From an uncultured Bacteroides sp. (lineage in GTDB: Bacteria; Bacteroidota; Bacteroidia; Bacteroidales; Bacteroidaceae), in contig CAJJYX010000040.1 of assembly GCA_905197435.1 (NCBI GenBank), forward strand, positions 1-20,079: a stretch of DNA of 20,079 nucleotides, written 5' to 3'. Positions within the stretch are counted from its first letter, which is position 1. Every line of letters starts with the position of its first letter. A program made the translations under genes and the position numbers. Below the pieces are notes generated by a model that was given only the letters and a program-made list of their open reading frames with translations, did not search any database and was not told where the DNA came from. This document shows, one piece after another, positions 7,712-20,079 of this stretch.

Positions 7712-8725
7712 TTATCTGCGTGACTGTTCCTCCCGCTCGAGGAACTCCCTGATGTCTTCTTTCAACCACTGGTAAAGATAAAGGTTCTTGTAGCCGCTGT
7801 TTTTTTTCAACATCACGGATACATTGACCTGGCTGTTCTCATACCCCGTCAGCTCGTTGCGGAACTGTTCGTCATGCTCGGCCAGGCGCTTTATCTCCTG
7901 CTCGCGTTCACGACGCAGCACCGTACATACCGGGATAAGGATTTTCAGCACTACACAATCCATGATATGGTGTCCTTGGATATAAAGATAGGTATTGTCC
8001 GGAGTCAGTCCCAAACGTTCCAACTCCGTGCCCAGCTGCTCCACCCGGTCGATGTAATGCGGAAAACGGGCTTGTAGTTCGGACAACTTAGCCGACACCG
8101 TCTTTTGCATTTCGTCCAGGCTGCGATAGGGATGCCGCAGGTTTATCTCGTGCAGACGCACACAGGCATTGAAGTCATACATCGGGAAGGTGTGCGTGTC
8201 GTGCTGGCGGTAGAACCAGACATTCCACAGAAACAACGGATAGGCTATCTGCGAATAACGCTTCAGAAAAGCGGGGAAGTCCAGGATGTGGCGGTCGTTC
8301 AGCGTGGCCTGCACACAGACTTCATGCAGACTGTCGGCAAAGCAGTGGAAGTTTTCGATGGCATAGCCGTAAGTCTGGAAGATATAGGGGTTCTTGTTTA
8401 TCTTATGCGATACTTTGGTAGCACCTTGAAGCAGGAAGTCGTAGTCGCTGTCCACACACGCTATCAGGCTGCGCCCCAGTTCTGCCGTATTCAGCGTGTT
8501 CATCAGCACCATTTTCTTTCCCTTGGCCAGAGAAGTGGTGGAGGGAAGCATCACCTGGAAATAGCGTTCCTCAGTCTCGAACTCGGACAGCAATGTCCGC
8601 CAGAAAGCGATGTCGTCATAGCTCTCCACATACGCCACTATGCGCCTGCGTGCTTTCTTGGGAGACAACTTGCGAGCAGCATCCAGATAAGCAGAAGTCA
8701 GGTTATGTCTTAAAGAAGTTGCCAT
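7712..8725 (-). CDS. DUF4435 (TOPRIM-like) protein, AriB-like partner of the ATPase
   Basis: A 337-residue cytoplasmic protein. Acidic motifs typical of TOPRIM folds are visible: E34 in YVESYDD and the pair D92/D94 in CVDSDYD, followed by YAIENFHCF at 121-129. These fit DUF4435, the domain of AriB, the toxin nuclease of the PARIS anti-phage system. I start at ATG 8725, whose A is the last base of the ATPase stop codon (TGATG), rather than the TTG three bases earlier; this one-base overlap implies translational coupling. Residues 165-175 are aromatic-rich (WNVWFY). Family assignment rests on motif recall, not on a search, and nuclease activity is inference. Confidence 0.75.
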   Translation of the reverse strand: MATSLRHNLTSAYLDAARKLSPKKARRRIVAYVESYDDIAFWRTLLSEFETEERYFQVMLPSTTSLAKGKKMVLMNTLNTAELGRSLIACVDSDYDFLLQGATKVSHKINKNPYIFQTYGYAIENFHCFADSLHEVCVQATLNDRHILDFPAFLKRYSQIAYPLFLWNVWFYRQHDTHTFPMYDFNACVRLHEINLRHPYRSLDEMQKTVSAKLSELQARFPHYIDRVEQLGTELERLGLTPDNTYLYIQGHHIMDCVVLKILIPVCTVLRREREQEIKRLAEHDEQFRNELTGYENSQVNVSVMLKKNSGYKNLYLYQWLKEDIREFLEREEQSRR

Positions 8726-9552
8726 CAATCACTAACCGCTGTTGAAATATCGCTCACCTCTGTCACGGCATCCAGCCAGCCTTCCATAATGACGGCAGGC
8801 GAATGGGTGGTAAGGATAAGCTGTATATTGGGATTCAGGTCGCGTATCATGCCGATAAGTTTCTGTTGCCATTCGATGTGCAAGGAAGCTTCCGGCTCGT
8901 CCATAAAGAGCACGCAATGGTCATCATCGCGCACCAGTACAGTCAGCAGAATGACCAGCATCTGCTTCTCACCCGAAGACAGCTTGTAGGGCAACAGGCG
9001 TTCACCGTTCTGATAGAAAACGATGTCGTTGCTTTTGCGGTCTATCTTCTTGCCGGTATAGCTGAAAAGTTCGTCAATCATATCCTGGAACTTCCTCTTG
9101 GGCAAAGAAAGGGAGGAAGCCAGGCTGCGCTGCCCTTCATCACCGCTGAGCAGTTCTATCATCTTGTTGCCTATGTTCACCTGATAGTCCAGATAACGGC
9201 GTTGGAGCAGATAGAGCTGCCAGTCCAATTCCGACTTCACATTGGCATCGGCCATGCGCGCCGTAAAGTCTCCCATGATGAGGGGGCGGTCGTAGCTGCG
9301 GATTACGTCGTAGGGAATAAAGGTGGCTGAGGGATTATCGAAGTAAACATGCACGCCATTCTTCTCGTCGTTTTTCACTTCGCCCGATGTCTGCTCCAGA
9401 TAGTTGACCGAACGGTTCAGGATAGTGGTCTTCCCCACTCCATTGATGCCGGAAAGTATATTGACGTCGGGACGCAGGTCCCAGGCAATATCGTACCGAT
9501 GCCACAGTCCGTGTATCTCGATACGTTTGATGTAATTGGCTTGTACTTCCAT
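8725..9552 (-). CDS. ABC-type AAA ATPase, AriA/OLD-like
   Basis: A compact 275-residue ATPase of the SMC/RecF/OLD type. Walker A is GINGVGKT at 35-42, the ABC signature LSSGEKQ at 191-197, Walker B VLFMDEPE at 214-221 and the H-loop TTHSP with H250. The region between Walker A and the signature is short, so there is no long coiled coil, and it is smaller than typical AriA. It is the first gene of the minus-strand operon and overlaps the DUF4435 gene by one base. A perfect -7 box lies upstream. Pairs of this kind act as sensor ATPase plus nuclease in defence; here that role is inferred. Confidence is high for the ATPase fold, moderate for the system. Confidence 0.88.
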   Translation of the reverse strand: MEVQANYIKRIEIHGLWHRYDIAWDLRPDVNILSGINGVGKTTILNRSVNYLEQTSGEVKNDEKNGVHVYFDNPSATFIPYDVIRSYDRPLIMGDFTARMADANVKSELDWQLYLLQRRYLDYQVNIGNKMIELLSGDEGQRSLASSLSLPKRKFQDMIDELFSYTGKKIDRKSNDIVFYQNGERLLPYKLSSGEKQMLVILLTVLVRDDDHCVLFMDEPEASLHIEWQQKLIGMIRDLNPNIQLILTTHSPAVIMEGWLDAVTEVSDISTAVSD

Positions 9553-13638: not shown

Positions 13639-16600
13639 TTACTTTATGACTATTGTCCCTCCCGCCGAATGTGAGGCATATTCCGGAGCATAAGCACATT
13701 GTATAGTGGCCAACCCGGTTTCATAAGTTCCGCTACGGGCTATACGGTAACTGTGCTCCAATATATAAACGCCTTTACCCAAATGGTCGAAGAAGAAATT
13801 GGCTGCGGCATCCTCCACCTCCGCATAATAACCGAAGCCATTGTTCCAACGATAGCCGGACAGCGCTCCTATAGGTTCAAAGCAAGCTCCACGTTGGTCT
13901 TTCAATTGGACAAAGTCCATGGCACGGTCCAGCCGGATAGTCAGACGGGCAACTATTTTATCGCCGACAGACAACCGGGCCCCTTCAGCAACCGGCTGCA
14001 AAGACTTGCTACCGTCAGCCGATACTCGCTCCACATAGAGCTTCTTCTCCACATTCAATTCACCGCCCTGCTGCTTTACATCAGATATGGGCGACAGGTA
14101 TTGGGCATAAACGGCTCCCCATGCAATGCCGGCATCCCGCTTCTCTACAGTGACTGATTTAGCTTTCAGCTCCGGACTGCCCTGGGTAAAGGTTTCCTTG
14201 ACATAGCCCAAACCCGGAACCGCGGTCTTTGCAGGTGACACTGTTTCCAGAATTTCACCGCCTAAAGTGATACGTACATCACCACGGCTTTCCAGCAAAT
14301 TAGCACCTTGGCAAAGCAGTGCATAAACTGCATCGGCTGTAGCAACCGGAGAATTCCAACTGGTGGCCTGCTTCTGTTTCAGCAGCCAAAGCTTCATTTC
14401 CTCCACCAAAGCGTCGTTGCCACCTGCCATACGCAAAGCTTCCATTACTTCCACATGGGCAGGGACAGGCAACATACCCCAACTGTACGGATTGGCATGG
14501 AAAGCAAAATATGCACCCATCTCATCCGTCTGCACCAGATGTTCTTTGAGGGAAGCAATGAATTCATTCGCTTCGGTTATCCGTCCTGCCGCCTTTAGAA
14601 TGATGGCAGACTGCGCTTTGCTGCTCATTGTTCCATTTTCAAGGTTAGCAGCCACTTTCGAAAGGAAATAGCGGTAAGCAGCCTGGTTCTCAGCAGGCAC
14701 TTTTTCGCCACTGAGAGCAATCAGGTACAGATACGTCATAGCCGCTTCCGAGTTGCCAACAATTCTGGCACCGTTTTTCTCGGATTTACGGATATTACGA
14801 TACTCTTCCAAAGCCTGCCGGTTCAAATAGCCGAAAGCTTTCTGTCGCACGGCGGCAACTTCTTCAGGCAGTTCATTCTTCGTCAGCAAAGGAAGACGAA
14901 CAAGCAATTCTGTAATATAGCCGGTTATATGGCGGCTGCCGGACATCCCTTTATACCAGCTCCATCCTCCGTCTTCACCTTGCAATTCTTTCAATTTGGT
15001 AAAGGCGGAAAGATTACGGCTATTCAGTTGATTGATGTCAAACAGTGTGCCAATACGTGCTTGCTGTTCGGCTTCGGTAGTAGCTTCCAGTACCCAGGGG
15101 GACTCGCTAAGCAAGATATTCTTCACATCCTGGTTCTTCTCCAACCGGCTAAGGAAAGTTTCCTTTGTTCCACCGACAGCCTTCCAGCTATCGAACACGG
15201 CTTTGATACGAGGCTGGCTGTTGGCAATAAAGCCGGCCAAACTGTTGGCATACCAGGCTGTTGCCCAAGATATAGCATTGTCATTGACAGGCAAGCTCAA
15301 TACCGGCAAGGCCTGTACGGCATACCACGCCGGATTTCCGGTAAATTCCACTGTCAGACGACGGTCTGTCGCCGTACGGCTGTTGCGATTGAAAAGGCTG
15401 TCCAATGAGAACGTACGGATTTCCTCGCCACGGATAGGCATGGCAAGCGTTTCCGTGATATATTCCTTGTTACTCAATACAGGCAATAGATGCTGCTCGC
15501 CATCGCTGAACGCACCTCCATCGGCAACCATACGGACACCCAGCAAATCATAACGGTCGGACACCTCAAAATGGAAGTTGAGGGCAACGCTTCTTCCCGC
15601 CTCCACTGAAAATTTCTGCCGTTGGGTGGAAATGACCTTCTCCGTCATGGGATCGAACAAAGTGAATACAGCAGCCCCTTTCACAACTTTATCCGTCAGA
15701 TTGGCAATCGTGCCGGCTATCTGTGTTTTGTCCCCAACACGGACAAAACGAGGCATATTAGGAGTCAGCATAAACTCTTTGGCGGTAACGACAGAAGCAT
15801 CCAACATCCCCGTCAGCATATCCTTGGTATGTGAGTAACCCCGGAAGTTCCAGCGGGTCAGGCTTTGCGGCATCATAAAGGAGAATGCAATCTCTCCTTG
15901 TTCATTGGTATGCAGTTGAGGGTAGAAGAAAGCTGTTTCGGCAAAGTTGGTACGAAGGCTCGCATCGGGTTGCAGTACTTGTTCTCCAACAGGCATAGCC
16001 TCTTCTTCAAAAGCCGCATCGGCTGCCATAGCGTATTCTTGTGATTCAACAGCTTTTCCGGCTTTTCGAGAAGCAAGCATCGGTTCACTTACACCACGTA
16101 TCCGCAACCCTCCAGTTACTGAATTATTCCGGGTATTCCCATACCCCACCACAGTTGCTTCCTCCAAAAGCGCCTCATCTTCTACCATTACTATCCGCAT
16201 CACTCCATCCATATAAGGAGAACAGAAATAATCGAACGACCATGCCGGAACCCTCCAAGCCTTCAACGGGAAATAAATGGAGGAATAATTGTTTCTGTAA
16301 CTGCTTGCATTACGGAATGCACCATATAGATTATCCGGATAGAAAACCCGCAGCAACTGATTGCGGCTATAAATCTTATCCAATGAGGCATCATACATCG
16401 TTGCCAACATCTCGGCTGCAGCAGGTATGCCGTTGGGAGTCTTTATAACAAGTTTCCACTCTTCCTCCTGTCCGGGACGCAAACGGTCACGGAATACTTC
16501 CCATTTCATACTGAGGGTACGTTCCGGCTGCCGTTTTTTCAGATAAACCTGATGGCTGTACATTTCACCGTCTTTCACAAAATTGAAAAGCAGGGTAACT

Positions 16601-19515
16601 CCTTTGCCATACGCTTCTTTATAAGGATATTCCATGCGGATGATTGTATCATTCAACTGCAACACACGACTTTCAATGCGCTTCCTGTCACAGAAGACAT
16701 CCATAAGCACATAAGTATCTCTATGGGAAGTACCCAACAAGAAAGCAGCAGGATGCTGCGCATCAAATTCGTCATTTTCCTTATAGTAGAAGAAGTCCGT
16801 AAATGCTGCCGGGCGTTTGTCACTCTTTGAAAAGAGCACGAAATTGTCACTGCCATATTCCCCATTATTCTCTTCACATTCCAAACTGTCGCGTACGGAA
16901 AGTTTCAAACGATAACTGCCCGAAGGAAGCCTATTCCAAGTCGAGAAATCCTGGAGCCGATTGGCAGTGAATGTGCCCTCCAATGCCACATCACCAAAAG
17001 ACTGGGAGTCTCCTGCATTCTTCGCCCCGTCTGGTTCTGCAAATGGATAAAGGCAATAGGAGCCTTCAATGTTCTGAGGGACATCCATTATATTATTCAC
17101 TCCAAAAGTAAAAAACATGCTGTCTTCCTTGCAGATATACCGGGGGAGGCGGACATCAAAGGAATAAGCCTTAGGACCTGCCAACAGATTATATGAGGCA
17201 GTCTGTGTTTCACCGGCCTCATCCGTTACCACAGCCTCCACATGATAGGTATACACGCTCCCATATTTGTCTGTATCTCCGTCCGGTGCATCCAAAGTCA
17301 AGGGAATAGCAAAATCACCGTTGACATCCAATTGTATGGTATCGGACAATAACGGTTTGTCCGCATTATTCCAATAGTCAAACCTCGGATTCTGACGGGT
17401 CACAGTATAGGTCAGCGGTACATCCTGCACCGTCATTCCATTAAAAGCTTTGACATTTCCTTTCAATACCACCTTTTCGCCTAATCGATATGCTTCCGAG
17501 ACGGGAGTAAAGGTTATTTCGAAAGTAGGCCGCTTGTATTCTTCCACTCTGAAAGTTACGGTGGATTGAGGGTCTTTGGTTTGTATGCTGAACATCCCAT
17601 TCAGACAAGCTGCCGGAAGCACAAATTCGGTAGTAAAAGAGCCGAAATCATTTGTCTGTACCTTCCTGGTGGCAAGTTCCTTACGGTTAACATCCAACAA
17701 AGCAAGCTCATAGTCAATCCCTTGCAACACATGGGCACTATCATTGTTCTGTATGTAAGCTATCCCTTTTACATGAACGGTCTGTCCCGGGCGATAGAGT
17801 GATCGGTCTGTCAGCAAAGCCATCTGCTTCCAATCGGTATCCTTGATACCAGCATAAGAGCGATTCATGTAAATGTGCTGCGGCATCATGGCAGTGTCCT
17901 TGCCTTTACGTGCCACATAACTCCGGATTCCGTCTTGCCAAGGCAATAGAGCCTTTCCACCGGCATCAGTCAACACCTCTGCCATCACTTTCCGGTTCTT
18001 CTCATCATAAGAAGAGTAGAAACTCACCTTGGCATCAGCAATCGGTTGTCCACTTCGAGCATCCAATGTGGTCACTTCCATGCGGTTGTCTCCCAAGTTC
18101 AATGTCAACACCTTAAAGCGGGTAGATACCAAGAATTCGTCGTCTGTACGGGCGGTTGCGGCATCCGGCACTACCTGGACAATATAGACTCCCGTCTCCT
18201 GAGGTATCACAAACTTGAATACCGTATCAGAGGAGAGATAAGGGACATCTTCCGGCAATTTGTCTTTACCCGGCAACGGCTGCAAATCGAAGTGAGTGGA
18301 AGAAAGTTTCCGAGCAAACTTTTTATAAGTATCCTTATTTATGCCATGATCCATCCAAGGGACTTCACTTAAAGTAGTGGCATATAAGTTGAGAGTAAAC
18401 CCTTTCAAATTACAGTACTGCAATCTCATGTCCACCGAATCACCGGGATAACCGCTTCCATTCATTGTCAGAGTAAATTCAGGCTGCAAGATCTGTTCAC
18501 GGATATTTCTCAATTCATTGATGCGCTTGTACGCAGGATAGCGTTTCAAACCTTCTGCACAGACCTTCAACGCCTCACCGGCACGCATCGGCTCTGAACG
18601 ACGCAAATAGTCGGCTTTATGTATGTAAACCTCTGCACAAATCTCACGTGCACCATATTCCTTTATCAGTTTATCCAAAACTTCAAGATATTCCCGATTA
18701 GCCTTTTCCCGGCGCATCCGGAAAGTAGGATAAGGCTGCCGGCTGATGCCGTCGGCCAACTTCCAACTCCAATAATCAAGCGAACAGAGCAACAGGGCAT
18801 TTTCCGAACCGGCACGATGACGATAAGCATTCATCATATCCTGATAAACCCTCTCGATACGGGCTTGCACCAAAGAATCCACGTTGAAACCATCAAGCTG
18901 CCGATAAGTGTCAATGGCACGGCTCACCAACAGATGGTACATATCGTGCCCATAGAATCGGCTGCCGTCTTCCAACACCACAAAAGGCACATATTTTTCG
19001 GCGGATGTATCGAGCAGACGGATAGAATCTTGTAAAGATGCACGGATATACCCGTCTATCTTGTCCACAAACTGGCTGATGCTCCACTCACGGACATCTT
19101 CCGGAACCTCATCGACATCCAGCAAGGTACGCGACAACAAGGTACGACGGTCCTTTTGCATCAGCTCGGCATATTCACGCGCCAGCAAAGAATGCAAAAT
19201 GGCCTTGCTCACCGGTTCCTTCTCTGATTGTGCCCAGGATTCCATATACTTCAGGCCGGAATAAAGACTATCCGGAGTCAGCTCCTCCTGATAAGTTTCC
19301 CTACAGATGTATGCTTTCAACATCTGCGGGGCATTCTGCTCCTGCCTGCCTTTCCGGTAGATTTCATCGGCCAGCTTTATCACTGTCTTGGGCAGGCTTT
19401 TCTTTTGAGCCTGTTCTACCTGCTTCCATAATTTGTCATACGTCTGCGCATGCAATGCCAACGCTCCGAATGTAACCAGCAGCAATATGCTACAAATTCT
19501 TTGAATTGCTTTCAT
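13639..19515 (-). CDS. Bacterial alpha-2-macroglobulin-like (MG2) protein
   Basis: A 1958-residue exported protein. Signal peptide 1-23 ends ALALHAQ with no lipobox. A helical, TPR-like N-terminal part spans about 24-330. Then come macroglobulin-type beta-sandwich domains, including the MG2 signature DRSLYRPGQTVHVKG near 570, and the A2M segment AFFYPQLHTNEQGEIAFSF near 1190. The thioester position, expected as CxEQ, is replaced by SLPVNDNAISWATAW near 1405, so covalent trapping is unlikely. Near 1119-1135 it carries EEATVVGYGNTRNNSVTGG, which resembles the start of a SusC plug. Family role: envelope protease inhibitor or defence; for this member the role is inferred. It is monocistronic: a promoter lies upstream and terminators lie on both sides. 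Confidence 0.92.
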   Translation of the reverse strand: MKAIQRICSILLLVTFGALALHAQTYDKLWKQVEQAQKKSLPKTVIKLADEIYRKGRQEQNAPQMLKAYICRETYQEELTPDSLYSGLKYMESWAQSEKEPVSKAILHSLLAREYAELMQKDRRTLLSRTLLDVDEVPEDVREWSISQFVDKIDGYIRASLQDSIRLLDTSAEKYVPFVVLEDGSRFYGHDMYHLLVSRAIDTYRQLDGFNVDSLVQARIERVYQDMMNAYRHRAGSENALLLCSLDYWSWKLADGISRQPYPTFRMRREKANREYLEVLDKLIKEYGAREICAEVYIHKADYLRRSEPMRAGEALKVCAEGLKRYPAYKRINELRNIREQILQPEFTLTMNGSGYPGDSVDMRLQYCNLKGFTLNLYATTLSEVPWMDHGINKDTYKKFARKLSSTHFDLQPLPGKDKLPEDVPYLSSDTVFKFVIPQETGVYIVQVVPDAATARTDDEFLVSTRFKVLTLNLGDNRMEVTTLDARSGQPIADAKVSFYSSYDEKNRKVMAEVLTDAGGKALLPWQDGIRSYVARKGKDTAMMPQHIYMNRSYAGIKDTDWKQMALLTDRSLYRPGQTVHVKGIAYIQNNDSAHVLQGIDYELALLDVNRKELATRKVQTNDFGSFTTEFVLPAACLNGMFSIQTKDPQSTVTFRVEEYKRPTFEITFTPVSEAYRLGEKVVLKGNVKAFNGMTVQDVPLTYTVTRQNPRFDYWNNADKPLLSDTIQLDVNGDFAIPLTLDAPDGDTDKYGSVYTYHVEAVVTDEAGETQTASYNLLAGPKAYSFDVRLPRYICKEDSMFFTFGVNNIMDVPQNIEGSYCLYPFAEPDGAKNAGDSQSFGDVALEGTFTANRLQDFSTWNRLPSGSYRLKLSVRDSLECEENNGEYGSDNFVLFSKSDKRPAAFTDFFYYKENDEFDAQHPAAFLLGTSHRDTYVLMDVFCDRKRIESRVLQLNDTIIRMEYPYKEAYGKGVTLLFNFVKDGEMYSHQVYLKKRQPERTLSMKWEVFRDRLRPGQEEEWKLVIKTPNGIPAAAEMLATMYDASLDKIYSRNQLLRVFYPDNLYGAFRNASSYRNNYSSIYFPLKAWRVPAWSFDYFCSPYMDGVMRIVMVEDEALLEEATVVGYGNTRNNSVTGGLRIRGVSEPMLASRKAGKAVESQEYAMAADAAFEEEAMPVGEQVLQPDASLRTNFAETAFFYPQLHTNEQGEIAFSFMMPQSLTRWNFRGYSHTKDMLTGMLDASVVTAKEFMLTPNMPRFVRVGDKTQIAGTIANLTDKVVKGAAVFTLFDPMTEKVISTQRQKFSVEAGRSVALNFHFEVSDRYDLLGVRMVADGGAFSDGEQHLLPVLSNKEYITETLAMPIRGEEIRTFSLDSLFNRNSRTATDRRLTVEFTGNPAWYAVQALPVLSLPVNDNAISWATAWYANSLAGFIANSQPRIKAVFDSWKAVGGTKETFLSRLEKNQDVKNILLSESPWVLEATTEAEQQARIGTLFDINQLNSRNLSAFTKLKELQGEDGGWSWYKGMSGSRHITGYITELLVRLPLLTKNELPEEVAAVRQKAFGYLNRQALEEYRNIRKSEKNGARIVGNSEAAMTYLYLIALSGEKVPAENQAAYRYFLSKVAANLENGTMSSKAQSAIILKAAGRITEANEFIASLKEHLVQTDEMGAYFAFHANPYSWGMLPVPAHVEVMEALRMAGGNDALVEEMKLWLLKQKQATSWNSPVATADAVYALLCQGANLLESRGDVRITLGGEILETVSPAKTAVPGLGYVKETFTQGSPELKAKSVTVEKRDAGIAWGAVYAQYLSPISDVKQQGGELNVEKKLYVERVSADGSKSLQPVAEGARLSVGDKIVARLTIRLDRAMDFVQLKDQRGACFEPIGALSGYRWNNGFGYYAEVEDAAANFFFDHLGKGVYILEHSYRIARSGTYETGLATIQCAYAPEYASHSAGGTIVIK

Positions 19516-19580: not shown

Positions 19581-19617
19581 CTTTTGGATATAAAAAATCT
19601 TATTCCACGCCTATAAA

Positions 19618-19656
19618 AAGGCAAGGGATATGTTTTGAAAACATATCCCTTGCCTT
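19618..19656 (-). terminator. Strong terminator of the micro-peptide cluster
   Basis: A perfect 19-bp stem pairs 19618-19636 with 19638-19656 around a single central base (effectively a four-base loop). On the minus strand the stem runs straight into GCCTTTTTATAGG, a T-tract. It starts 21 bases after the stop of the 31-codon ORF, so it ends transcription of the small ORFs before the next promoter. Confidence 0.88.
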
Positions 19657-19676: not shown

Positions 19677-19772
19677 TCACATTTGGAGGCTATAATATTT
19701 CATTGCCTCCATCCAATTCTTACCAGCTGCGGTAAGAATGCGCTTAAATGAATTTGCAATCTTCTTTTTCAT
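19677..19772 (-). CDS. Micro-peptide 1 of a tandem paralogous cluster (31 aa)
   Basis: An ATG-started 31-codon ORF ending in TGA. The peptide starts MKKKIANSFKRILTAAGKN and ends MEAMKYYSLQM. It is basic at the N-terminus and would form an amphipathic helix. It shares the pattern M-K-x-K-I-x-x-S-x-[KR]-R-I-L-x3-G-[KR]-N with the next ORF upstream, which argues that it is translated. A leader of 24 bases (19773-19796) nearly identical to that of micro-peptide 2 precedes it, and a strong terminator follows. No double-glycine leader, no Cys, no signal peptide. Function unknown: peptide signal, leaderless bacteriocin, small membrane-active toxin or regulatory leader are all possible. Confidence 0.65.
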   Translation of the reverse strand: MKKKIANSFKRILTAAGKNWMEAMKYYSLQM

Positions 19773-19796
19773 AATCTTAAAATTAGACTAATACCT
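19773..19796 (-). promoter_or_regulatory. Conserved leader before micro-peptide 1
   Basis: The minus strand begins AGGTATTAGT and ends TTTTAAGATT directly before the ATG. It matches the leader before micro-peptide 2 at most positions, with one base fewer. It may be a shared translation-start or RNA element that was duplicated with the gene. Confidence 0.55.
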
Positions 19797-19837
19797 AAAC
19801 TGAAGTTTGACCTGAAACCGGCCAGACTCTTACATTT

Positions 19838-19930
19838 TTACTTTTTCAGGGTGTAGCCCATTGACAGCGCTTCGTTCCTGCCGACTTCAGCGAGAATGCG
19901 CCTTACTGATTTCATAATCTTTTCTTTCAT
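19838..19930 (-). CDS. Micro-peptide 2 of the cluster (30 aa)
   Basis: A 30-codon ORF, ATG to TAA. The peptide begins MKEKIMKSVRRILAEVGRN and ends ALSMGYTLKK. It aligns without gaps over its first 19 residues with micro-peptide 1, with conservative changes (K/R, V/F), while the DNA differs; that is the pattern of selection on protein sequence. I use ATG 19930 rather than the in-frame ATG at 19915 because the conserved leader abuts it. No export signal and no modification motif that I recognise. The gap to micro-peptide 1 is 65 bases with no terminator. Function unknown. Confidence 0.65.
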   Translation of the reverse strand: MKEKIMKSVRRILAEVGRNEALSMGYTLKK

Positions 19931-19955
19931 AACCTTAAATTTTAAACTAATACCT
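19931..19955 (-). promoter_or_regulatory. Conserved leader before micro-peptide 2
   Basis: The minus strand begins AGGTATTAGT and ends AATTTAAGGTT directly before the ATG at 19930. It is the duplicate of the leader at 19773-19796. The AGG is too far from the ATG (about 22 bases) to act as a Shine-Dalgarno sequence. Confidence 0.55.
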
Positions 19956-19991
19956 GAAAACTAAAATCCAATACTTCAACAAAAGGGGGAG

Positions 19992-20006
19992 AATGCTTAA
20001 AGCATT
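19992..20006 (-). other. Small palindrome over the micro-peptide 3 stop codon
   Basis: AATGCTT (19992-19998) and AAGCATT (20000-20006) are a perfect 7-bp inverted repeat around one base. On the minus strand it is followed by CTCCCCCTTTTG, so it is at best a weak terminator or attenuator between micro-peptides 3 and 2. Confidence 0.4.
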
Positions 20007-20071
20007 ACATAACCCCAAATGTTCTTATCGGCTTCACCGACATGCTTAAAAAAACTCTTTAACATTTTCAT
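19997..20071 (-). CDS. Micro-peptide 3 of the cluster (24 aa)
   Basis: A 24-codon ORF, ATG to TAA, beginning MKMLKSFFKHVGEADKN and ending IWGYVML. It is shorter and more diverged than the other two, but keeps a K-S-F/V core, a Gly-containing middle, [KR]-N and a closing G-Y-x-(x)-L like the GYTL of micro-peptide 2. Its stop codon lies in a short palindrome (19992-20006). Only eight bases upstream are visible, so its leader and promoter cannot be judged, and further copies may lie beyond the window. Of the three this is the least certain to be coding. Confidence 0.5.
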   Translation of the reverse strand: MKMLKSFFKHVGEADKNIWGYVML

Positions 20072-20079
20072 TTTGTTAT

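What the first reader, a model, noticed from the sequence alone, without database searches (positions are those of the whole stretch)
19677..20071. Tandem cluster of three paralogous 24-31 residue peptides, too short for standard gene calling
Three ATG-to-stop ORFs lie in a row on the minus strand. The first two share M-K-x-K-I-x-x-S-x-[KR]-R-I-L-x3-G-[KR]-N, and the third keeps a reduced form of it. All are basic and helix-prone and end with an aromatic/Leu tail (KYYSLQM, GYTLKK, GYVML). Similarity is at protein level with diverged DNA, and the cluster has its own strong terminator, so this looks like an expressed, expanding peptide family and not chance ORFs. The N-terminal part is conserved and the C-terminal part variable, a leader/core-like layout. 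Candidate roles: secreted signal, leaderless bacteriocin, type-I-like toxin or regulatory peptide. I do not recognise the family.
Basis: partly seen in the sequence, partly recalled or inferred. Interest (0 to 1): 0.78.

Follow-up and report, generated by a model that had tools for sequence, protein, structure and literature searches.

The report
Bacteroides carbon-limitation micropeptide operon
Three tiny proteins of about 24 to 31 amino acids, usually missed by gene finding, are encoded in one short operon found in many species of the gut genus Bacteroides, and its control region carries the binding site of the cell's carbon-shortage regulator, so they are probably real working parts of how these bacteria cope when sugar runs out.

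Summary
The three ORFs are real and where reported. They belong to a micropeptide family of the genus Bacteroides: 86 of 158 genus genomes match the A/B profile at E<=0.01 and 70 of 158 the C profile at E<1e-5. Three paralogue classes keep the order C-B-A, and 85 of 104 arrays lie near pepD and/or an alpha-2-macroglobulin gene. Selection keeps the proteins (pN/pS 0.28, 0.17, 0.19). Relatives share a control region: a TTGAN6TCAA box near -79, the published Cur/BT4338 palindrome near -60 and a Bacteroides -7 box. The strict Cur core occurs in 82 of 102 arrays against 1 of 520 control genes. The first ORF carries GGAGG in 54 of 104 arrays against 5 of 601 long ORFs, although Bacteroidia ribosomes hide the anti-SD. 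The peptides are predicted amphipathic helices, mostly cationic; orthologue C-terminal halves are the better conserved in A and B, against a leader/core precursor. The representatives tested match no Pfam, NCBIfam, PADLOC or Rfam family. Best reading: effector micropeptides of the Cur starvation programme. Translation, Cur action and target are inferred.

The parts
19997..20071 (-). ORF C, MKMLKSFFKHVGEADKNIWGYVML, first cistron, class with W-G-Y near the C-terminus
   Evidence: class C profile A3: 70 of 158 genus genomes at E<1e-5; pN/pS 0.28
20072..20079 (-). 3' end of the leader of ORF C (ATAACAAA). The GGAGG, promoter and operators lie beyond the window edge and are inferred from relatives L001, L003, L151
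   Evidence: these relatives have AGGAGGATAACAAAATG
19931..19969 (-). AT-rich leader of ORF B with TTTTCAGGTATTAGTTTAAAATTTAAGGTT, a repeated leader element without SD
   Evidence: similar elements precede B and A in the relatives aligned
19838..19930 (-). ORF B, MKEKIMKSVRRILAEVGRNEALSMGYTLKK, class G-R-N-E..G-Y
   Evidence: pN/pS 0.17
19773..19809 (-). AT-rich leader of ORF A (contains TTTAGGTATTAGTCTAATTTTAAGATT)
19677..19772 (-). ORF A, MKKKIANSFKRILTAAGKNWMEAMKYYSLQM, class G-K-N-W-M-E-A-M-R-Y-Y
   Evidence: pN/pS 0.19; AlphaFold2 helix 2-30, pLDDT 90.5 from the single sequence
19612..19656 (-). intrinsic-terminator-like hairpin, 18-bp stem (19618-19656) followed by UUUAUA
   Evidence: -27.7 kcal/mol, z -7.58; a hairpin at the same place with changed bases in most of 10 aligned relatives; not called by the simple scan

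Best explanation
The ORFs form a single short operon encoding up to three paralogous amphipathic micropeptides (C-B-A). It is transcribed from its own Bacteroides-type promoter, activated on carbon limitation by the CRP-family regulator Cur (BT4338) at a palindrome centred near -60, together with a second CRP/FNR-like factor at a TTGAN6TCAA box near -79. Transcription ends at the hairpin behind ORF A. The first cistron is initiated at a GGAGG SD that is rare in these genomes, the later ones at AT-rich leaders. The peptides are kept as proteins. The most likely mode of action is that the N-terminal amphipathic helix docks on a membrane or protein surface, while the conserved C-terminal epitope (WGY / GRNExxxxGY / GKNWMEAMRYY) engages a dedicated partner to adjust starvation metabolism. 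Shown: the ORFs, their conservation, selection and order, and in relatives the operator motifs and GGAGG; the hairpin is predicted. Inferred: activation by Cur, translation in vivo, membrane or partner binding, and the role in carbon limitation.
For: Family. Selection: pN/pS 0.28 (C, 235 pairs), 0.17 (B, 243) and 0.19 (A, 99) within 11 hand-made clades holding 76 of the 104 loci (which corrects two labels); few indels inside ORFs (gapped fraction 0 to 0.041 in four clades). Conserved unit and place: order never reversed, 85 of 104 near pepD and/or A2M. Operators: strict TGTTNTANAACA in 82 of 102 arrays against 1 of 520 control genes, TTGAN6TCAA 95 of 102 against 8 of 520, composite 79 of 102 against 0 of 520. 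Of 89 arrays with TTGA box plus -7 motif, TTGA centre at -79 in 77 and -78 in 10; Cur-like palindrome (TGCT allowed) in 77, at -60 in 69 and -59 in 8. The Cur consensus was published independently (PMC3878776 and PMC6989115, passages). SD: GGAGG 54 of 104 first ORFs, 2 of 98 later ORFs, 5 of 601 long ORFs. Amphipathicity: mean helical-moment z of 2.79 (C), 2.35 (B), 2.38 (A) against shuffles; helix model.
Against: No RNA-seq, Ribo-seq or proteomic data could be read here. The window itself does not contain the promoter. The leader in four clades and the C-B spacer in three of four are about as conserved as the ORFs, so RNA-level function is possible. 66 of 158 genus genomes have no convincing member (union, counted by hand; many are small, perhaps incomplete genomes), so the peptides are not universal. 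L003 has a broken C ORF. In two small clades pN/pS of B reaches 0.45 and a third 0.54, on three pairs each. In genome G005 the A2M locus (L005) has no array; its array lies elsewhere. No partner or membrane data exist. The TTGA-box factor is unknown.
Confidence: 0.5

Rival explanations
1. The transcript acts mainly as a regulatory or dual-function small RNA of the Cur regulon, like MasB, and the peptides are minor or co-functional.
For: Short unit with its own hairpin; leader conserved in four clades and C-B spacer in three of four; Cur is known to drive an sRNA, MasB (PMC10994844, passages). Whether the array overlaps any annotated BTnc RNA could not be checked.
Against: pN/pS of about 0.2-0.3 and few indels in the ORFs; a consensus fold of 10 of the 104 arrays has little covariation (-1.72 of -26.15 kcal/mol); no Rfam family in the window or ten loci; MasB is described as about 100 nt and narrowly conserved.
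Confidence: 0.15
2. Membrane-active peptides: a type-I-like toxin, a leaderless bacteriocin or antimicrobial peptides.
For: Mostly cationic amphipathic helices, mean net charge +4.0 (C), +3.3 (B) and +5.0 (A); class B of one clade is fairly hydrophobic, 3 of 60 distinct B peptides exceeding 1.6 over 15 residues.
Against: No conserved immunity, export or maturation neighbour (many neighbours not identified); no PADLOC match for the three window peptides; no peptide exceeds 1.6 over 19 residues and no A or C peptide exceeds 1.0 over 15; recurring locus, fixed order, conserved C-terminal epitopes. No antisense RNA search was made.
Confidence: 0.12
3. Secreted signalling peptides or pheromones released under starvation.
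For: Several paralogues, short, conserved C-termini, regulated promoter.
Against: No conserved transporter or receptor neighbour (neighbours only partly identified); conservation extends across species, unlike typical self/non-self pheromones (recalled). Signal peptides were not tested with a dedicated tool.
Confidence: 0.07
4. uORFs or leader peptides that attenuate the downstream alpha-2-macroglobulin gene.
For: A2M is among the two nearest downstream genes in 62 of 104 arrays.
Against: A hairpin separates them in the window. 19 of 104 arrays have neither pepD nor A2M as near neighbour, other genes lie in between in several loci, and arrays keep at least the TTGA box without A2M (for example L045 both boxes, L197 the TTGA box).
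Confidence: 0.03
5. Chance ORFs.
For: Short length.
Against: Homologues in more than half of the genus genomes searched and purifying selection.
Confidence: 0.01

Closest known systems
E. coli carbon-regulon small proteins AzuC, SgrT, SpfP (all recalled; a paper search for AzuC with three other terms gave 0 hits)
   Same: Short proteins from short transcripts under carbon-source control; AzuC is amphipathic and membrane-associated (recalled).
   Different: No sequence relation was tested; single ORFs on sRNAs, not a three-paralogue operon; different phylum, different promoter, no SD anomaly.
Cur (BT4338) regulon of Bacteroides, e.g. fusA2 and the MasB sRNA
   Same: Same published operator core TATGTTnTAnAACATA upstream.
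   Different: Adds a fixed TTGAN6TCAA box near -79; the composite matched 11 arrays and 3 other places in 12 genomes, and a looser pattern also found one other small protein gene. No member named in the passages I saw is a micropeptide operon.
rpsU/bS21 SD switch of Flavobacteriales (PMC9976891, passages)
   Same: A rare strong SD in a lineage whose ribosomes occlude the anti-SD.
   Different: That paper says no Bacteroidales meet the rpsU criteria; here the SD is GGAGG only, not shown to be an extended SD, and precedes a micropeptide ORF.
Small-protein families of human microbiomes (Sberro 2019, seen only as a reference cited in PMC7366714)
   Same: Conserved short ORFs in gut bacteria; this family could be among them.
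   Different: Membership could not be checked; its tables were not available.

Membership tests
Cur (BT4338) regulon | Palindrome TATGTTnTAnAACATA upstream | tested here: met
   Core TGTTNTANAACA in 82 of 102 arrays of relatives against 1 of 520 controls; not visible in the window, whose edge cuts off the promoter
Cur (BT4338) regulon | Binding and Cur-dependent expression under carbon limitation | not testable with these tools
   ChIP-seq and RNA-seq tables are supplementary files with a zero look-up cap
Type I toxin | Hydrophobic transmembrane peptide | tested here: inconclusive
   A and C: none above 1.0 over 15 residues. B: 10 of 60 distinct peptides above 1.0 and 3 above 1.6 over 15 residues, none above 1.6 over 19
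Type I toxin | Overlapping or divergent antisense antitoxin RNA | not tested
   No antisense search was made
RiPP or bacteriocin with leader/core | Conserved leader, variable core among orthologues | tested here: not met
   Information N-half against C-half: C 2.66/2.73, B 2.35/2.88, A 2.67/3.44 bits
RiPP or bacteriocin with leader/core | Adjacent maturase, transporter or immunity gene | tested here: inconclusive
   pepD and A2M flank 47 of 104 arrays and no such gene was seen as a conserved neighbour, but neighbours unlike the reference genes were not identified
Known protein family | Match in Pfam, NCBIfam, PADLOC or PHROGs | tested here: not met
   Three window peptides: Pfam, NCBIfam and PADLOC none; three relatives: NCBIfam none; 13 members: PHROGs best E 0.032, not convincing
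Known RNA family | Rfam gathering-score match | tested here: not met
   Window and ten loci, 0 matches

The most novel reading that the evidence does not exclude
A dedicated starvation micropeptide operon read by a translational switch. Cur and a second CRP/FNR factor turn it on in carbon limitation, and its first cistron, led by a GGAGG that ordinary Bacteroides ribosomes would not see, is translated preferentially by a changed ribosome pool (for example bS21-poor or EF-G2-loaded), so that three amphipathic peptides are made only in starving cells.
Probability: 0.12. Interest if true: 0.88.

Novelty: new variant of a known kind. Interest (0 to 1): 0.7.

Why it matters
Cur is needed for B. thetaiotaomicron to colonise the gut, partly independently of fusA2 (PMC6989115, passages), so Cur-controlled effectors of unknown kind are wanted. 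A recurrent micropeptide operon with a highly conserved Cur-type control region, usually missed by gene calling, gives an immediately testable set. The GGAGG in front of its first ORF also gives a natural test of whether Bacteroides ribosomes ever use SD pairing.

Tried and rejected
Window genome search: none held. Pfam, NCBIfam, PADLOC and PHROGs: none convincing. Rfam: none. Paper search for six core peptide strings: 0 papers. Paper search for Bacteroides + small proteins + carbon limitation + Cur: 0 papers. MasB as the same locus: its place is not stated in the passages seen; the description (about 100 nt, narrowly conserved) does not fit; left open. Structured ncRNA: a consensus fold of 10 arrays gave little covariation. 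The composite operator outside Bacteroides: 1 of 295 Bacteroidales genomes at up to 2 mismatches, G001 itself. A filtered dN/dS was replaced by an unfiltered within-clade one, because the 60% identity filter favours low pN; one search then corrected two labels (the broken C frame of L003 dropped, one L204 peptide moved from A to B). The clades were grouped by eye, not by a tree, and leave out 28 of 104 loci. The same two wrong labels remain, and some trimmed starts count as separate peptides. The 104 loci were chosen from profile hits; hits at G871:C45 and G805:C1:1928902 were not fetched, and G762 (five hits, best E 6.3e-4) was not looked at. L002 and L005 (A2M loci without an array in the stretch held) are not among the 104. 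L230 is probably a false positive and L229 has no boxes; both stay in the counts, as does the window, whose leader is cut. Box patterns were chosen after looking at the sequences, except the Cur core, which is published. The SD and operator controls use the first ATG of long ORFs, so some starts may be wrong. Genomes are related, so counts are not independent.

Full report
What is there. The window ends in a run of three minus-strand ORFs: A at 19677-19772, B at 19838-19930 and C at 19997-20071. By strand, C is first. An 18-bp hairpin follows A (19618-19656), and a 1958-aa alpha-2-macroglobulin-like protein lies beyond it (13639-19515; Pfam A2M, MG2, bMG10). The closest of five loci found with the first 699 residues of that protein are from Bacteroides muris and B. 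rodentium (85% identity each). The window stops 8 bases before ORF C, so the promoter is not in it, and everything said about the promoter comes from relatives.

Is it more than chance? Yes. In B. muris (L001) C and A are present and B is missing. In B. rodentium (L003) B and A are intact and C is frame-broken. In a Bacteroides MAG (L004) only A is intact. Profiles made from these peptides were searched in whole genomes. In a sample of 399 genomes of the family, 17 matched the A/B profile at E<=0.01; of the three weakest, G056 has a convincing C+B pair, while G335 and G127 show no such ORF. In the genus, 86 of 158 matched the A/B profile at E<=0.01. 78 of 158 matched the C profile at E<=0.1, of which 70 are below 1e-5, one of them (G003) the broken frame. 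The union is 92 of 158, counted by hand from the two lists. In order-level samples hits were rare: 18 of 393 for A/B at E<=0.05, of which besides G001 only G508 is clearly convincing, and 8 of 295 for C at E<=0.1, with G001 and G018 convincing.

Anatomy of the family. 104 loci were scanned for ORFs matching the profiles. Three classes appear: C with W-G-Y, B with G-R-N-E and G-Y, and A with G-K-N-W-M-E-A-M-R-Y-Y. The array compositions are CB 42, CBA 16, B 10, C 9, CA 8, A 8, BA 7 and four others once each, of 104 (two labels are wrong, see Tried and rejected). The order C before B before A is not reversed in any array. Among the two nearest genes on each side, pepD lies upstream in 70 and A2M downstream in 62, both in 47, at least one in 85 of 104; 19 arrays have neither. 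In genome G005 the A2M locus has no array beside it and the array lies elsewhere. In L050 and L060 class B sits directly behind the leader type otherwise used by C, as expected from recombination between the repeated leaders. The picture is a three-gene array with repeated losses and some extra copies elsewhere, not an ongoing expansion.

Are the peptides translated? Within 11 hand-made clades (76 of 104 loci), without an identity filter, pN/pS is 0.28 for C, 0.17 for B and 0.19 for A over 235, 243 and 99 pairs, which are not independent; single clades range from 0 to 0.54. ORFs carry few indels, with gapped fraction 0 to 0.041, while spacers reach 0.107 and the 3' flank 0.24 (four clades). 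Against a purely coding reading, the leader in all four clades and the C-B spacer in three of four are about as conserved as the ORFs. Public protein predictions contain relatives of A (8 hits) and B (59 hits); two carry a name, 'hypothetical protein' and 'hypothetical protein [Bacteroides ovatus]', and none a Pfam domain.

The control region. In 330 bp before the first ORF, TTGAN6TCAA occurs in 95 of 102 arrays against 8 of 520 control long ORFs. The strict palindrome TGTTNTANAACA occurs in 82 against 1, and both in tandem (TGCT allowed) in 79 against 0. The palindrome is the core of the published consensus wwwTATGTTnTAnAACATAwww of BT4338/Cur (PMC3878776, passages; PMC6989115, passages). Of 89 arrays with a TTGA-box-to-(-7 motif) pair, the TTGA box is centred at -79 in 77 and -78 in 10. 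The Cur-like palindrome was found in 77 of them, at -60 in 69 and -59 in 8, and a copy at +3 in 52 (the TSS is inferred from the TAnnTTTG box, not measured). In 12 whole genomes the composite has 14 matches at up to one mismatch: 11 are arrays, one per genome, G018 has none, and 3 others look like chance. A looser box-plus-promoter pattern in 5 genomes gave 15 matches. Seven are peptide loci. Four lead to one orthologous 117-118-aa protein starting MKRLGLTL, by eye probably exported. One in G018 resembles that promoter without a gene being shown, one in G018 leads to a further basic 29-aa ORF, and two are unexplained. TTGATN4ATCAA is the FNR-type box as I recall it; its Bacteroides binder is not known to me.

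The leader. GGAGG lies within 18 nt of the start in 54 of 104 first ORFs, 2 of 98 later ORFs and 5 of 601 long ORFs. The leader AGGAGGATAACANRATG has, in 10 genomes at up to one mismatch, 13 matches, 10 of them arrays. Bacteroidia ribosomes sequester the anti-SD and strong SDs are rare; for Bacteroidales the paper names rpsR and says none meet the rpsU autoregulation criteria (PMC9976891, passages). Whether this SD works is unknown. Some clades keep only AGGATAACAA, so the element may have another role.

The peptides. All classes have amphipathic N-termini: mean helical-moment z of 2.79 for C, 2.35 for B and 2.38 for A against shuffles, mean net charge +4.0, +3.3 and +5.0. Hydropathy over 15 residues stays below 1.0 in all distinct A and C peptides; 10 of 60 distinct B peptides exceed 1.0 and 3 exceed 1.6, the highest being of one clade with MKKLFVYLI-type N-termini; over 19 residues none exceeds 1.6. 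AlphaFold2 gives one helix for A (residues 2-30, pLDDT 90.5, single sequence) and a less certain helix for a C peptide (2-26, pLDDT 69.4, 8 sequences). Information is higher in the C-terminal half for A (3.44 against 2.67 bits) and B (2.88 against 2.35) and about equal for C. That pattern suggests a specific partner for the tail and argues against a leader with a variable core.

How it most likely works. When sugars run out, Cur binds at about -60 and, with a factor at the TTGA box, activates the short operon. The peptides are made, lie with their helix on a membrane or protein surface, and contact a partner by the conserved tail to adjust starvation physiology. The operator motifs, ORFs and selection are shown; helix propensity is predicted. 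Cur action, translation, location, partner and physiological role are inferred. The design resembles the carbon-regulon small proteins of E. coli such as AzuC and SgrT (recalled), but no membership in a known family is claimed.

Novelty. The representatives tested have no match in Pfam, NCBIfam, PADLOC or Rfam and only weak PHROGs scores, and no held paper contains any of six core strings. The held library excludes most subscription papers, and supplementary tables could not be opened, so prior listing among bulk small-protein predictions or BTnc transcripts is possible.

Noticed in passing
window 7712-9552, minus strand: Adjacent AAA ATPase and DUF4435 genes match PADLOC AriA (7.5e-59) and AriB (1.3e-68): a PARIS-like anti-phage pair (system name recalled).
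   Followed up: partly
L264, L260, L261, L268 around base 1500: A 117-118-aa, by eye probably exported protein (MKRLGLTL...) has a TTGA box, a Cur-like palindrome (with differences) and a -7 box like the peptide arrays, in 4 of 5 genomes searched; the L261 protein has no confident Pfam or NCBIfam match.
   Followed up: partly
L271 minus strand, about base 1674: The same box-and-promoter pattern in genome G018 leads to a 29-aa basic ORF (MKEVKSLLRTIRKNLEWSAKAMYGQYDRR), possibly a further divergent family member.
   Followed up: no
L003 5472-5545: ORF C of B. rodentium is frame-broken while B and A are intact; could be real decay or an assembly error.
   Followed up: no
leaders of arrays and of L261/L264/L269: A leader element like TTTTTAGGTATTAG / AGGATAACAA occurs one to several times before the start codon, also in the 117-aa gene's leader; its role is unknown.
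   Followed up: no
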